NCBI GenBank assembly: GCA_026387935.1 | Contig: JAPLKU010000014.1 | Coordinates: 1-64,000 of the forward strand | Length of the DNA: 64,000 bases | From: Gemmatimonadota bacterium | Lineage (GTDB): Bacteria > Gemmatimonadota > Gemmatimonadetes > Gemmatimonadales > Gemmatimonadaceae | Reading direction: 5' to 3' | Shown: one piece after another, positions 30,149-34,314 of the stretch | Position numbering within the stretch: position 1 is the first letter of the stretch | How the letters are laid out: each line of letters starts with the position of its first letter | The notes under the pieces: model-generated | Told to the model about the DNA's origin: nothing | Database searches by the model: none | Seen by the model: only the letters and a program-made list of their open reading frames with translations | Position numbers and translations under genes: made by a program

Positions 30149-31102
30149 ATGGATGGATTGTCGGTACCGGTCAACACGTTCCGCGTTCTCGCCGGAACGA
30201 GCAATCGCGGACTCGCAGAAGAGATCTCCGCCAGCCTGGGCGTGGAACTCTGCAAGTGCACGACGAGCCGGTTTGCGGACGGAGAGGTTTTCGTCCGTAT
30301 CGACGAGAATGTCCGGGGCGCGGATGTGTTCATCGTGCAATCGACGAACCCACCCGCGGAAAACATTCTGGAGATGCTGTTGCTCATTGACGCGGCCCGT
30401 CGCGCGTCGGCCGCACGAGTGACAGTCGTGATTCCCTACTTTGGGTACGCGAGGCAGGACCGCAAGGACCAGCCGCGCGTGGCCATCGGCGCCAAGCTGA
30501 TGGCGAACCTGATTGAGGCAGCGGGCGCGGCGCGAGTCCTCGGACTCGACTTCCACGCCCATCAGTTGCAGGGCATGTTCGATTTGCCGGTGGATCATCT
30601 GTACGGCTCACCGGTGTTCACGTCACACTATCGCAAGAAGCAACTGCAGGACCTTGTGGTGGTGGCACCGGATGTCGGCAGCGCGAAGATGGCCCGTGGA
30701 TTTGCGAAGCGGCTCAACGGATCCCTCGCTATCATCGACAAGCGGCGTCCCGCGGCGAACGTGGCGGAAGTGGTGAACGTGGTCGGCGATGTTGAGGGCA
30801 AGGACTGCCTCATCCCCGACGACATGATTGATACAGCGGGCACGGTGAGCGAAGCCGCGCGCGCCTTGAAGGACCTCGGGGCGAAAGACATCTACGTATG
30901 CGCGACGCATGCGCTGCTGTCGGGCCCTGCGGTGGAGCGGCTCTCGAAGGCGCCAATCAAGGAGGTCACGGTGACCAACTCGATTGCGATTCCCGAGTCG
31001 CGGCGCTTTCCCGCGCTGACGATCTTGTCGGTCGGAGATTTGTTTGCGAAGGCGATCCGGTTTACACACGCGGATCAGAGTGTGAGCAGTTTGTTTGAAT
31101 AG
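30149..31102 (+). CDS. prs: Ribose-phosphate pyrophosphokinase
   Basis: FRVLAGTSNRGLAEEI, FADGEVFVRI, YARQDRKDQPRVAIGAKL, DDMIDTAGT. Confidence 0.96.
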   Translation: MDGLSVPVNTFRVLAGTSNRGLAEEISASLGVELCKCTTSRFADGEVFVRIDENVRGADVFIVQSTNPPAENILEMLLLIDAARRASAARVTVVIPYFGYARQDRKDQPRVAIGAKLMANLIEAAGAARVLGLDFHAHQLQGMFDLPVDHLYGSPVFTSHYRKKQLQDLVVVAPDVGSAKMARGFAKRLNGSLAIIDKRRPAANVAEVVNVVGDVEGKDCLIPDDMIDTAGTVSEAARALKDLGAKDIYVCATHALLSGPAVERLSKAPIKEVTVTNSIAIPESRRFPALTILSVGDLFAKAIRFTHADQSVSSLFE

Positions 31103-31154
31103 ACGGTAGACGGTAGGCAGGAGACGGCGAACGACCGTCTACCGACTACCATCT
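31101..31154. repeat. Inverted heptamer array D (miniature palindromic form)
   Basis: AGACGGT AGACGGT AGGCAGG AGACGGC - GAACG - ACCGTCT ACCGACT ACCATCT; 10-bp perfect GGTAGACGGT/ACCGTCTACC. Confidence 0.8.
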
Positions 31155-31232: not shown

Positions 31233-31919
31233 ATGGCATCAGTCAAGTTTCCCGCGACCCTGCGGACCACAGTCGGCAAGGGCGCCGCGCGCAAGCTGCG
31301 CGCGAAGGGTGCGATTCCCGCGATCATCTACGGGCACAAGCGCGAGCCGCTCTCGCTCACCCTCGACGAGCACACGCTGAACAAGTTGCTCGAGAAGATC
31401 AGCTACACCACGACGGTCATCGAACTTGACGTCGCTGGCACGATGGCGCGCACGATCATTCGCGAGCTCCAGCGCCATCCGGTCAAGCGCAATATTCTGC
31501 ACGTCGATTTCCAGGAGCTCGTAGCCGGTGAGAAGATCACGGTACGCGTGCCCCTCAAGTTCGTCGGCACACCGGACGGCGTCCGTATGGGCGGCGGTAT
31601 TCTCGACGAAACGATCCGCGAGCTGCACATCTCGGTCGATCCGGCGAACATCCCGAACCACATCGACGTGGATGTCACGTCGCTGCAGGTGGGCAAGTCG
31701 CTGCACATCCGCGACGTGAAGATTCCGGACGGCGTGACGGTGCTGGACGATCCGGCCGGCACGATCTGCGTCTGCGTGATTCCGAAGGAAGTCGCGGCAC
31801 CGGCGGCAGCGGGCGAAACGACGGCAGCAACGCCAGCCGAACCCGAGCTCATCCGCAAGGCGAAGCCGGACGACGAGGACGGGGCCGAAGGCGCGGCGCC
31901 GGAGAAGGACAAGAAGTAG
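31233..31919 (+). CDS. rplY: 50S ribosomal protein L25 / general stress protein Ctc
   Basis: TVGKGAARKLRAKGAIPAIIYGHKREPLSL and TL5-like C-terminal domain. Confidence 0.93.
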   Translation: MASVKFPATLRTTVGKGAARKLRAKGAIPAIIYGHKREPLSLTLDEHTLNKLLEKISYTTTVIELDVAGTMARTIIRELQRHPVKRNILHVDFQELVAGEKITVRVPLKFVGTPDGVRMGGGILDETIRELHISVDPANIPNHIDVDVTSLQVGKSLHIRDVKIPDGVTVLDDPAGTICVCVIPKEVAAPAAAGETTAATPAEPELIRKAKPDDEDGAEGAAPEKDKK

Positions 31920-31929
31920 TCGTGCGGTT

Positions 31930-31974
31930 GCCGCGCGGCGGGGATGGCATTCGCCGTTCCCCCCTCCGCGCGGC
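31930..31974 (+). terminator. Hairpin after rplY
   Basis: GCCGCGCGG/CCGCGCGGC stem. Confidence 0.45.
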
Positions 31975-31999
31975 GGCCTGACGCGCTTCCCGTCGACGC

Positions 32000-32593
32000 A
32001 TGAAAGTCATCGTCGGATTGGGGAATCCGGGAAAGGAATACGAAAAGACGCGTCACAACGTCGGCTGGTGGGTCGTTGACCACCTCGCCGACGTTTGGCG
32101 TTTTGAGGGCTGGAAAAATGACGGCGAGGCACGCGTGTCGTCCGGCGTGGTGCACGGCGCTCGCGTGCGGCTGGTGAAGCCGCAGACCTACATGAACCTG
32201 TCTGGCGCAGTGCTGCGCCAGTACAAGCGGCGGCCGTTCTTCGCCGTGGCGAACGACCTGCTCGTGGCCGTGGATGAAGTCGCACTGCCCGTTGGCCGCT
32301 ACCGCTTTCGCGAAAAAGGTTCAGCAGGCGGGCACAACGGACTCAAGAGCGTTGAAGCCCACGTCGGCACACAGGAGTACGGGCGACTGCGGATCGGCGT
32401 GGGGCCGCCGGAGGAGCGAGAGCGGTCGGGTTCGCTCAGCGACTACGTGCTGTCGTCCATGGGCAAGGGCGACACGGGCGCGGTGCTGGATCTGCTTCCG
32501 CCGCTGACCGAGGCGATCGAGCTCTGGATCGCAGAAGGGATGAAGAAGACGATGAACGCCTTTCCGGGAAAGGCGGGAGACGGTAGTGAGTAA
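32000..32593 (+). CDS. pth: Aminoacyl-tRNA hydrolase
   Basis: VGLGNPGKEYEKTRHNVGWWVVDHL, KPQTYMNLSG, GSAGGHNGLKS. Confidence 0.96.
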   Translation: MKVIVGLGNPGKEYEKTRHNVGWWVVDHLADVWRFEGWKNDGEARVSSGVVHGARVRLVKPQTYMNLSGAVLRQYKRRPFFAVANDLLVAVDEVALPVGRYRFREKGSAGGHNGLKSVEAHVGTQEYGRLRIGVGPPEERERSGSLSDYVLSSMGKGDTGAVLDLLPPLTEAIELWIAEGMKKTMNAFPGKAGDGSE

Positions 32594-32634
32594 CCGCAAC
32601 GGCGAGGACCGGGTCGCGAGTACCGTGTACCCCG
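32578..32634 (+). repeat. Left 57-nt heptameric inverted repeat (E)
   Basis: AGACGGT AGTGAGT AACCGCA ACGGCGA GGACCGG GTCGCGA GTACCGT GTACCCC G; matches the reverse complement of 33151-33207 at 44/57 without gaps. Confidence 0.85.
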
Positions 32635-32635
32635 T

Positions 32636-33040
32636 TTAGCGGCGAGCGGCGCCGAGTCGATCGGCTTGGCGAGGGAGCGGCTTCCGCTGCTCGCGCACCC
32701 GCTTCAACAGGCCAATCAGCATCTGGCGCACCTGCGTCGTTCGCGCATCGAGCCGCGCATACGCGGCGAGGGGAAGCAGGTCGAGGTCACGCGCCAGCAG
32801 CAGGTGATACTCCAGCTCAATCGCCCATGCGATTGCGTGCTGGAGAAAACGCGCCAGTTCCGCTTGCGAGGTATGCCCGCACCCTTCGGCGATGTTCGCG
32901 GGGATTGCGCTGGCTGCACGCCGCATCTGCGCGACGAGTCCTGGAAACGCCGCGCCCGGCCCCTCTTGGGTGAGCTGAAAACACTGCACGGCGAGTTCGT
33001 GCGCCTTGGTCCAGACGTCGAGCTTCCTGAAGTCCTGCAT
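32636..33040 (-). CDS. Four-helix-bundle protein (S23/IVP-like)
   Basis: MQDFRKLDVWTKAHELAVQCFQLT, QMRRAASAIPANIAEGCGH, ELARFLQHAIAWAIELEYHLLLARDL; AGGAGG ribosome-binding site upstream of the ATG at 33040. Confidence 0.9.
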   Translation of the reverse strand: MQDFRKLDVWTKAHELAVQCFQLTQEGPGAAFPGLVAQMRRAASAIPANIAEGCGHTSQAELARFLQHAIAWAIELEYHLLLARDLDLLPLAAYARLDARTTQVRQMLIGLLKRVREQRKPLPRQADRLGAARR

Positions 33041-33150
33041 ACGCCCTCCTGGTGAGCCGCACAAACTGGCGCGAATGATTGTCGAGTTCGACATCGTTTT
33101 CACTGCATCGAGATAGATTTCACGGCGCGCCGGCGCGTCCGCGTCGGCAA

Positions 33151-33207
33151 CCCGGTACGCCGTACGCGGTACTCGGTACTCGCCGCTGTCGTTACCCACT
33201 ACCGTCT
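33151..33207 (-). repeat. Right 57-nt heptameric inverted repeat (F)
   Basis: Reverse complement: AGACGGT AGTGGGT AACGACA GCGGCGA GTACCGA GTACCGC GTACGGC GTACCGG G. Confidence 0.85.
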
Positions 33208-33213
33208 ACGTCT

Positions 33214-34314
33214 TTGCTCTCCTTAGGAATCGTCGGCCTCCCGAACGTCGGAAAATCGTCCCTCTTCAACGCCCTCACGGCCGCGAAGGCCGAGGCCGCG
33301 AATTATCCGTTCTGCACGGTCGATCCGAATGTTGGCATGGTCGAGGTGCCCGACCTCCGACTCGTGAAGCTTGCCGAGATCGTGAAACCCGAGCGCACGG
33401 TTCCGGCCGTCGTGCAGTTCGTCGACATCACCTGCCTCGTGAAGGGTGCATCCCAAGGCGAAGGACTCGGCAACAAGTTCCTGACGAACATCCGCGAGAC
33501 CGATGCGATCGTGCACGTCGTCCGCTGCTTCGACGACCCCGACGTCACGCACGTGATGGGCAGCGTCGATCCGGTCCGCGACCGCGAGGTGATCGAGTTC
33601 GAGCTCGCCCTCGCCGACCTCGGCGTCGTGGAGAAGCGGCTCGACAAATCGAAGCGCGCTGCGCGCACGGGAGAAAAGGAAGCGCAGGCCGAACTCCCCG
33701 CACTCGAGAAGGCGCACGCGTCGCTCGCGGAGGGCAAGGCGCTCTGGCATGTGCTGCTCACCGACACTGAGCGCGCCATGCTCGCCACGCTGCAGTTGCT
33801 CACGCTCAAGCCGGTGCTCTACGCGGCCAACGTCACCGATGGCGAGCTGCAGGGCGACGAAGGCGCGCATGTGAAGGCGTTGCGCGCGGCCATCGCGCGC
33901 GACCGCGAGCCCGCCGAGGTCGTGACGTTCTCCGCCAAGATCGAAGGCGAACTCGCGGAGCTGGCCCCTGAAGAGCGCGCGGAGTTCCTCTCGTCGCTCG
34001 GTCTCGAATCTGCAGGCCTCGACCGGCTCATTCGCGGCGGCTACCACCTCCTCGGCCTCCAGACCTATTTCACCGCCGGTGAAAAAGAGGTCCGCGCCTG
34101 GACCATCCACCGTGGCGACACGGGTCCCAAAGCCGCCGGCGTGATCCACACCGATTTCGAACGCGGCTTCATTCGGGCCGAAACGGTGAGCTACGATGAT
34201 TTTCTTGCGCACGACGGCTGGAAGGGCGCGCGCGAAAAAGGCGTCGTTCGCTCCGAAGGCAAGGAATACGTCGTCCAGGATGGCGACGTGCTGCTGTTTC
34301 GCTTCAACGTCTGA
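33214..34314 (+). CDS. ychF: Redox-regulated ATPase / Obg-family GTPase YchF
   Basis: LGIVGLPNVGKSSLFNALTAAKAEAANYPFCTVDPN; start inferred as TTG (LLSLGIVG). Confidence 0.94.
   Translation: MLSLGIVGLPNVGKSSLFNALTAAKAEAANYPFCTVDPNVGMVEVPDLRLVKLAEIVKPERTVPAVVQFVDITCLVKGASQGEGLGNKFLTNIRETDAIVHVVRCFDDPDVTHVMGSVDPVRDREVIEFELALADLGVVEKRLDKSKRAARTGEKEAQAELPALEKAHASLAEGKALWHVLLTDTERAMLATLQLLTLKPVLYAANVTDGELQGDEGAHVKALRAAIARDREPAEVVTFSAKIEGELAELAPEERAEFLSSLGLESAGLDRLIRGGYHLLGLQTYFTAGEKEVRAWTIHRGDTGPKAAGVIHTDFERGFIRAETVSYDDFLAHDGWKGAREKGVVRSEGKEYVVQDGDVLLFRFNV

What the first reader, a model, noticed from the sequence alone, without database searches (positions are those of the whole stretch)
32578..33207. 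630-bp cassette: four-helix-bundle gene bracketed by heptamer-phased 57-nt inverted repeats
Left repeat (32578-32634), read by sevens: AGACGGT AGTGAGT AACCGCA ACGGCGA GGACCGG GTCGCGA GTACCGT GTACCCC G. Right repeat (33151-33207), reverse complement: AGACGGT AGTGGGT AACGACA GCGGCGA GTACCGA GTACCGC GTACGGC GTACCGG G. They align ungapped at 44/57 by hand count and share heptamer phase. Between them is a single minus-strand gene for a small S23/IVP-like four-helix-bundle protein, whose stop codon begins 2 nt after the left repeat. Terminal inverted repeats around one small gene, set between two housekeeping genes (pth and ychF), look like a minimal mobile or domesticated element, with the four-helix-bundle protein as candidate trans-acting partner of the repeats. 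I know of no named transposon type with this layout, but I cannot search. REP/RAYT units are only an analogy, since this protein is not a RAYT transposase.
Basis: partly seen in the sequence, partly recalled or inferred. Interest (0 to 1): 0.9.

Follow-up and report, generated by a model that had tools for sequence, protein, structure and literature searches.

The report
Small-protein gene inside heptamer-repeat hairpin
A small four-helix protein gene of an environmental bacterium sits inside a DNA hairpin built of seven-letter repeats; each species has its own repeat word, scattered through its genome as gene-less hairpins, so the protein is probably the partner of a whole class of bacterial repeats that had none.

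Summary
The repeats and gene are real (59 nt, 78% complementary), and the finding is larger than reported. The gene (32636-33040, minus; PF05635, S23/23S-rRNA-IVP) lies at a conserved pth-ychF site: 12 of 16 readable same-genus genomes have it, and the four without it have no PF05635 gene at all. Across many phyla PF05635 genes are bracketed by tandem heptamers in inverted orientation: period 7 in 67% of flanks against 4% of controls, with no other basic period. The heptamer is shared by the two arms of one gene but differs between genes and between species at the same site. Three predictions held. Gene-less hairpins with a species' own heptamer are scattered through that species and nearly absent elsewhere (GGTGRTC 39:0-1, GTACCGN 9:0-1). 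Heptamer arrays are rare in sampled genomes lacking the gene (2 against 13 per Mb). A model built from gene-less hairpins finds only the two arms around the 4HB gene. The genus lacks Y1/RAYT transposases and, in 17 of 18 genomes, reverse transcriptase. The logic is that of REPIN-RAYT with an unrelated protein. I found no paper linking these proteins to dispersed heptamer repeats (preprints not searchable). Partnership is well supported; mobilisation versus RNA regulation is open.

The parts
32578..32636 (+). Left arm of the inverted repeat: GTAGTGA/GTAACCG outer units, CAACGGC spacer, inner GAGTACC-type units; overlaps the last codons and stop of pth
   Evidence: arm alignment with 12 dispersed arms of the same genome
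33149..33207 (-). Right arm, reverse complement of the left (GTAGTGG GTAACGA CAGCGGC GAGTACC GAGTACC GCGTACG GCGTACC)
32636..33040 (-). Gene for the four-helix-bundle protein, 134 aa, PF05635 (23S_rRNA_IVP / S23 family); dN/dS 0.05-0.23 between orthologues
   Evidence: Pfam E 5e-27; 2gsc phmmer E 6.5e-11; AlphaFold2 pLDDT 90, Foldseek 2gsc TM 0.92-0.94 and Avd 4dwl TM 0.81-0.85, target-normalised
33041..33148 (.). Spacer between the 4HB start and the right arm; holds a TAGATTTC-like motif also kept in two of the empty alleles, perhaps the ychF promoter
   Evidence: sequence comparison; function inferred
31099..31152 (.). Gene-less heptamer hairpin (TAGACGG units) in the prs-rplY gap; the orthologous site of G031 holds a GGTTAAC hairpin
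32000..32593 (+). pth (left neighbour)
   Evidence: conserved next to ychF in the genus
33214..34314 (+). ychF (right neighbour); probable TTG start 6 nt after the right arm

Best explanation
The locus is the protein-coding member of a species-specific family of REP-like palindromes built from heptamer units. Shown by sequence: the S23/IVP-type gene sits in the loop of one such palindrome; gene-less members with the same arms lie in many intergenic gaps of the same genome; heptamer type and gene change together between species; arrays are scarce in sampled genomes without the gene. Inferred: the protein, a ring-shaped homopentamer by its fold family, binds the arms as single-stranded or hairpin RNA or DNA, about one heptamer core per subunit (arrays peak at 28-34 nt, i.e. 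five cores). Inferred: this binding lets copies of the hairpin be placed or rewritten in gaps next to stop codons, with host replication and repair enzymes doing the chemistry, because no Y1 transposase and almost no reverse transcriptase is encoded. Like a RAYT, the gene itself is inherited vertically and its hairpins may be useful to the host at transcript ends.
For: Association: period-7 arrays in 31 of 46 flank pairs against 5 of 131 control windows, and inverted match above the 99% null in 37 of 46. It is repeated in a partly independent set of IMG/VR contigs, 24 of 34, and in cyanobacterial plasmids. Cognate tests: GTACCGN 9 hits in G000, 0-1 in 17 others; GGTGRTC 39 in G024, 0-1 elsewhere; ACGGYTG 23 in G032, 10 in G033, 5 in G000, 0-2 elsewhere. 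A profile from solo G024 hairpins finds only the two arms of the 4HB gene (E 6e-11, 3e-10) and nothing in five other genomes. Arms of orthologous loci match themselves, not other species (mean 44 against 20, permutation p<5e-5). Census: 13 period-7 arrays in 1.04 Mb of genomes with the gene, 2 in 1.0 Mb without. G024 copies are ~95-nt palindromes that fold strongly. Presence/absence sites and sites rewritten with another species' heptamer. No PF01797 in 18 of 18, no PF00078 in 17 of 18 genomes.
Against: No binding or mobility has been measured, and no catalytic domain is known in the protein. Orthologous gaps carry hairpins in two species with different heptamers more often than new insertion would predict, so rewriting of old sites, not only transposition, is needed. 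Variation among solo hairpins shows no net compensatory covariation. The heptamer match is not fully exclusive (ACGGYTG in three genomes; G000 has some arrays of other types). G027 and G028 keep the gene without arms although it remains under purifying selection. The cross-phylum cognate search added only one solo site. No target-site duplication was seen.
Confidence: 0.55

Rival explanations
1. RNA regulator. The four-helix-bundle pentamer is a Hfq/TRAP-like RNA-binding protein, and the dispersed heptamer hairpins are its binding sites at transcript ends (stability, termination). Sites are kept by selection and their sequence follows the drifting specificity of the protein; spread is incidental.
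For: Arms start at or just after stop codons and fill intergenic gaps. Orthologous gaps keep a hairpin while its heptamer changes (L090, L094, L104 against G024; prs-rplY G000 against G031; L243 against G036). Strong hairpin. Purifying selection, also where the arms are gone. Fold shared with Avd, which occurs in DGR reverse-transcriptase complexes.
Against: Clear presence/absence of whole hairpins between species (G031 31300, G000 73020) and near-identical arms of about 20 loci in G024 call for copying, not only selection in place. Elements also sit in cyanobacterial CRISPR operons and in thi and arg operons of other phyla.
Confidence: 0.28
2. Passenger. Heptamer hairpins arise by polymerase slippage and template switching or by another system; the 4HB gene is an IVS-like element that homes into such hairpins, as it does into rRNA helices.
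For: The Coxiella 23S rRNA IVS carries an S23 ORF with GACAGAT heptamer repeats upstream and is cut out by RNase III (PMC4990558). Array length varies by whole units between close relatives (G031/G037; Aquimarina L048/L049).
Against: Arrays are scarce in sampled genomes without the gene. Their sequence follows the resident gene. In the genus the gene does not move while the hairpins do.
Confidence: 0.12
3. Chance or compositional artefact of a GC-rich genome.
For: GC-rich coding sequence has weak 3-based periodicities.
Against: Only periods 7 and 14 are enriched, and 3-multiples are not. AT-rich cyanobacteria and Bacteroidota show it too. Permutation p<5e-5 for left-right matching.
Confidence: 0.01

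Closest known systems
REPIN-RAYT systems (REP sequences with REP-associated Y1 tyrosine transposase)
   Same: Single-copy, vertically inherited gene flanked by copies of a species-specific palindromic repeat that is dispersed between genes; repeats commoner in genomes with the gene (for RAYT: PMC8049555).
   Different: The protein is an S23/IVP four-helix bundle without an HUH/Y1 domain; PF01797 is absent from all 18 genomes. Arms are made of tandem heptamers and are longer (45-60 nt).
23S rRNA intervening sequences (IVS) with S23/IVP ORF (Leptospira, Coxiella)
   Same: Same protein family, ORF in the loop of a stem; the Coxiella copy even has heptamer repeats before the ORF (PMC4990558).
   Different: Located between protein genes, not in rRNA; intact and under purifying selection; linked to dispersed gene-less hairpins.
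Heptameric simple sequence repeats of Xanthomonas (GGGAATC) and Nostoc (GGGGAYT), TAACTGA of Beggiatoaceae
   Same: Dispersed intergenic heptamer arrays, about four units, often in inverted pairs in Xanthomonas (PMC4692102, PMC4679880). The nearest solved relative of our protein is Xanthomonas XCC0516.
   Different: My searches of those two papers found no mention of S23 or four-helix-bundle proteins. Whether XCC0516 is flanked by GGGAATC arrays was not testable here.
Avd of diversity-generating retroelements
   Same: Same four-helix fold (4dwl, target TM 0.81-0.85; DGR RNP 8ub7, 8ube).
   Different: No reverse transcriptase in 17 of 18 genomes of the genus, none in G000; only 10-12% identity.

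Membership tests
S23 / 23S_rRNA_IVP protein family (PF05635) | Match over the curated cut-off along the whole domain | tested here: met
   94.7 bits against 33.8, positions 1-105 of 106; fold 2gsc
S23 / 23S_rRNA_IVP protein family (PF05635) | Homopentameric ring | not testable with these tools
   2gsc and 2rld are deposited with five chains each; a homopentamer is reported for the Xanthomonas protein (PMC4990558); assembly not predicted here
rRNA intervening sequence (IVS) | Lies inside an rRNA gene | tested here: not met
   Between pth and ychF; no Rfam match in 31900-33400
rRNA intervening sequence (IVS) | ORF enclosed by complementary arms that can form a stem | tested here: met
REPIN-RAYT | Y1/HUH tyrosine transposase | tested here: not met
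   PF05635 instead; PF01797 absent in 18 of 18 genomes, controls ring
REPIN-RAYT | Gene flanked by the palindrome that is dispersed in the same genome | tested here: met
REPIN-RAYT | Gene inherited vertically at a fixed site | tested here: met
   pth-ychF in 12 of 16 genomes
REPIN-RAYT | Protein binds and mobilises the repeat | not testable with these tools
   needs bench work
Diversity-generating retroelement (Avd) | Reverse transcriptase with template/variable repeats | tested here: not met
   PF00078 absent in G000 and 16 of 17 relatives

The most novel reading that the evidence does not exclude
S23/IVP four-helix-bundle proteins are the trans-acting partners of the heptameric tandem repeats found across many bacterial phyla: a repeat-protein system in which a pentameric ring reads about five tandem units and drives the copying, or genome-wide rewriting, of species-specific hairpins with neither transposase nor reverse transcriptase.
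Probability: 0.35. Interest if true: 0.93.

Novelty: categorically new. Interest (0 to 1): 0.82.

Why it matters
PF05635 proteins are widespread, carry a misleading ribosomal name and have no known function. Heptamers are reported as the most abundant of the longer simple repeats in many bacterial genomes (cited in PMC4679880), also without explanation. Linking the two makes both testable: each gene predicts the sequence of its own repeats, and each repeat family predicts a protein. It would add a second, unrelated protein solution to the REPIN-RAYT problem of how short palindromes persist in compact genomes, and it poses a new puzzle, because the same intergenic sites carry different repeat words in different species.

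Tried and rejected
Recent cassette insertion at pth-ychF: rejected, since the site is shared across the genus. RAYT-driven spread: rejected by absence of PF01797. Own reverse transcriptase, DGR-like: rejected by absence of PF00078. Known RNA family: none. Pairwise compensatory covariation among solo hairpins: looked for, not found. Clean target-site duplications: looked for at sites with orthologous alleles, not seen. Dispersed arrays matching L043's heptamer in an Acidobacteriales genome: only one solo site besides the element, so the cross-phylum claim rests on flanks, not on dispersed copies. Literature: several full-text searches found nothing on S23/4HB proteins with dispersed heptamer repeats; preprints and most subscription journals could not be searched.

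Full report
OBSERVATION. The two arms exist as described: 32578-32636 and 33149-33207, 59 nt, 78% complementary, 512 nt apart. Between them the minus strand encodes one PF05635 protein (23S_rRNA_IVP, E 5e-27). Homologues begin at MQDF/Y, so the gene is 32636-33040 with an AGGAGG before ATG; the 187-aa GTG ORF over-reads into the right arm. The left arm overlaps the end of pth and the right arm stops 6 nt before the probable start of ychF, so the element fills the gap completely. The predicted structure (134 aa, pLDDT 90) matches the S23 proteins 2gsc (target TM 0.92-0.94) and 2rld and, more weakly, Avd 4dwl.

GENERALITY. The own genome (Gemmatimonadota, judged from its named relatives; handle G000) has one PF05635 gene, and 146 of 179 genomes of its family have at least one, up to 14. 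Reading the flanks of these genes, and of relatives in other phyla, shows tandem 7-nt (rarely 8-nt) units on both sides in inverted orientation, with a different word for each gene: GAGAGTT, CAGGTAT, GGGCGAC, AGCCGGA, GAGCGTC and others. Statistics: 31 of 46 genes have a period-7 tract of at least 22/35 against 5 of 131 outward-shifted windows, and of the basic periods tested only 7 (with its multiple 14) is clearly enriched. The inverted match exceeds the 99% cross-locus null in 37 of 46. In a partly independent set of IMG/VR contigs, 24 of 34 show period 7 (the inverted match there is above its own stricter null in 12 of 34, because several contigs share a word). Cyanobacterial plasmids show it (AAAAGCT, AGGGAAC, AGGGTGT), and so do Bacteroidota, Omnitrophota, Acidobacteria and candidate-phyla contigs. 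Array lengths peak at 28-34 nt (39 of 74), that is, five copies of a core within the heptamer.

THE SITE IN THE GENUS. Of 16 readable ychF loci, 12 have the gene between pth and ychF and 4 (G022, G026, G030, G035) do not; these four genomes have no PF05635 gene anywhere. At this one orthologous site the heptamer differs between species (GTACCGN in G000, GGTGRTC in G024, ACGGYTG in G032, CGGTTAA in G031/G037, GTTGGCG in G033), but left and right arms of one species match each other: mean score 44 against 20 for cross pairs, permutation p<5e-5. G027 and G028 keep the gene without arms; in G023 pth was not found upstream, so its left side cannot be judged. G022, nearest by pth, lacks the gene but keeps parts of both outer arms, as if the gene had been deleted. 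The gene is under purifying selection, dN/dS 0.05-0.23 (the larger distances are near synonymous saturation).

DISPERSED GENE-LESS COPIES. In G000 the outer and inner arm sequence recurs at several intergenic loci; twelve further arms align with the two of the window. In G024 19 further stretches carrying the GGTGRTC array were read besides the element itself. The symmetrical ones are ~95-nt palindromes with consensus AACGACAACGGCGAGTGnTGGGTGGTCGGTGGTCGGTnGTCGGTnGTGGTGA and its inverse, and the one folded is far more stable than shuffles (z -7.4). A profile made only from gene-less copies finds just the two arms of the G024 4HB gene and nothing in about 1.65 Mb of five other genomes. Conversely the arm of the single G031 gene finds dispersed arrays in G031 and none elsewhere.

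COGNATE AND DEPENDENCE TESTS. Whole-genome pattern counts over 18 genomes: GTACCGN 9 in G000 and at most 1 elsewhere; GGTGRTC 39 in G024 and at most 1 elsewhere; ACGGYTG 23 in G032, 10 in G033, 5 in G000 and at most 2 elsewhere. These are counts of pattern hits, several of which can fall in one array and some in the element's own arms. The third case shows that types are not perfectly private. Sampling about 1 Mb each, period-7 arrays number 13 in genomes with the gene (G000, G031, G036) and 2 in genomes without (G022, G035, G026); at a looser threshold 26 and 4. A few of the counted arrays belong to the 4HB elements themselves, and three genomes a side is a small sample.

SITES. Copies lie in gaps, often beginning at or just after a stop codon, mostly between tandem genes (gene calls there are rough). 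Comparison of orthologous gaps shows presence/absence (G031 31300 against G036 and G035; G000 73020 against G022) and, more surprisingly, the same gap holding hairpins of different heptamer type in two species (three of eight G000 loci against the G024 loci read; prs-rplY in G000 and G031; L243 in G024 and G036). Either certain gaps are preferred targets or existing hairpins are overwritten.

MECHANISM. The pattern (one vertically inherited gene flanked by the repeat it shares with a dispersed, species-specific population; fewer repeats where the gene is absent) is that described for RAYT and REPINs (PMC8049555). But no Y1 transposase exists in any of the 18 genomes, and a reverse transcriptase in only one. 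I therefore propose that the S23/IVP protein itself recognises the arms and that copying is done by host replication or repair. Recognition and copying are inferred; shared arms, co-change and dependence are shown. The five-core peak fits the reported homopentamer of this family (PMC4990558), but the match may be coincidence. A regulator of transcript ends is the main rival and may be true together with mobility.

KNOWN WORK. Heptamer repeats have been described in Xanthomonas and Nostoc (PMC4692102), Beggiatoaceae (PMC4679880) and, in passing, in the Coxiella IVS before its S23 ORF (PMC4990558). My searches found no paper that connects S23/four-helix-bundle proteins with dispersed heptamers. 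The library excludes preprints and most subscription journals, so prior description cannot be ruled out. I rate it categorically new because the defining features of both nearest kinds (Y1 transposase; rRNA location) were tested and not met, while noting that its logic is REPIN-like.

Noticed in passing
L143 (Pseudanabaena galeata plasmid), L148 (Picosynechococcus PCC 7003 plasmid): Four-helix-bundle genes with heptamer arms sit inside CRISPR operons (cas6-[4HB]-cas4; cas10-[4HB]-cmr3).
   Followed up: partly
L048, L049 (Aquimarina), L051 (Omnitrophota): The same element type lies inside biosynthetic operons, apparently thiG-[4HB]-thiH and argF-[4HB]-argG (genes read by eye); the Aquimarina arrays differ by whole heptamer units between two genomes.
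   Followed up: partly
L024 (G086) and L049 (Aquimarina): Two very distant bacteria share the heptamer CAGGTAT next to their 4HB genes; horizontal transfer or convergence not tested.
   Followed up: no
L062 (G027), L065 (G028), pth-ychF: The 4HB gene is kept under purifying selection although its arms are gone, which suggests a host function.
   Followed up: partly
window 33100-33115 and L069, L071: A TAGATTTC-like motif upstream of ychF occurs in occupied alleles and in the empty alleles of G035 and G030; it may be the ychF promoter, which would place the right arm in the ychF 5' UTR.
   Followed up: partly
L012, L025, L033: Some 4HB genes have 8-nt instead of 7-nt units (GGGGCGTC, GTCGGTCA-like, GGACGGTA).
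   Followed up: no
L030, L031, L042: Some 4HB genes have long inverted repeats (70-97 nt) without heptamer periodicity.
   Followed up: no
G036, G086: Some relatives carry 10-14 PF05635 genes; whether each has its own dispersed repeats is untested.
   Followed up: no
L256-L301: 46 IMG/VR contigs encode the protein, most of those testable with heptamer flanks; several share the GGCTGTCGGC-type word.
   Followed up: partly
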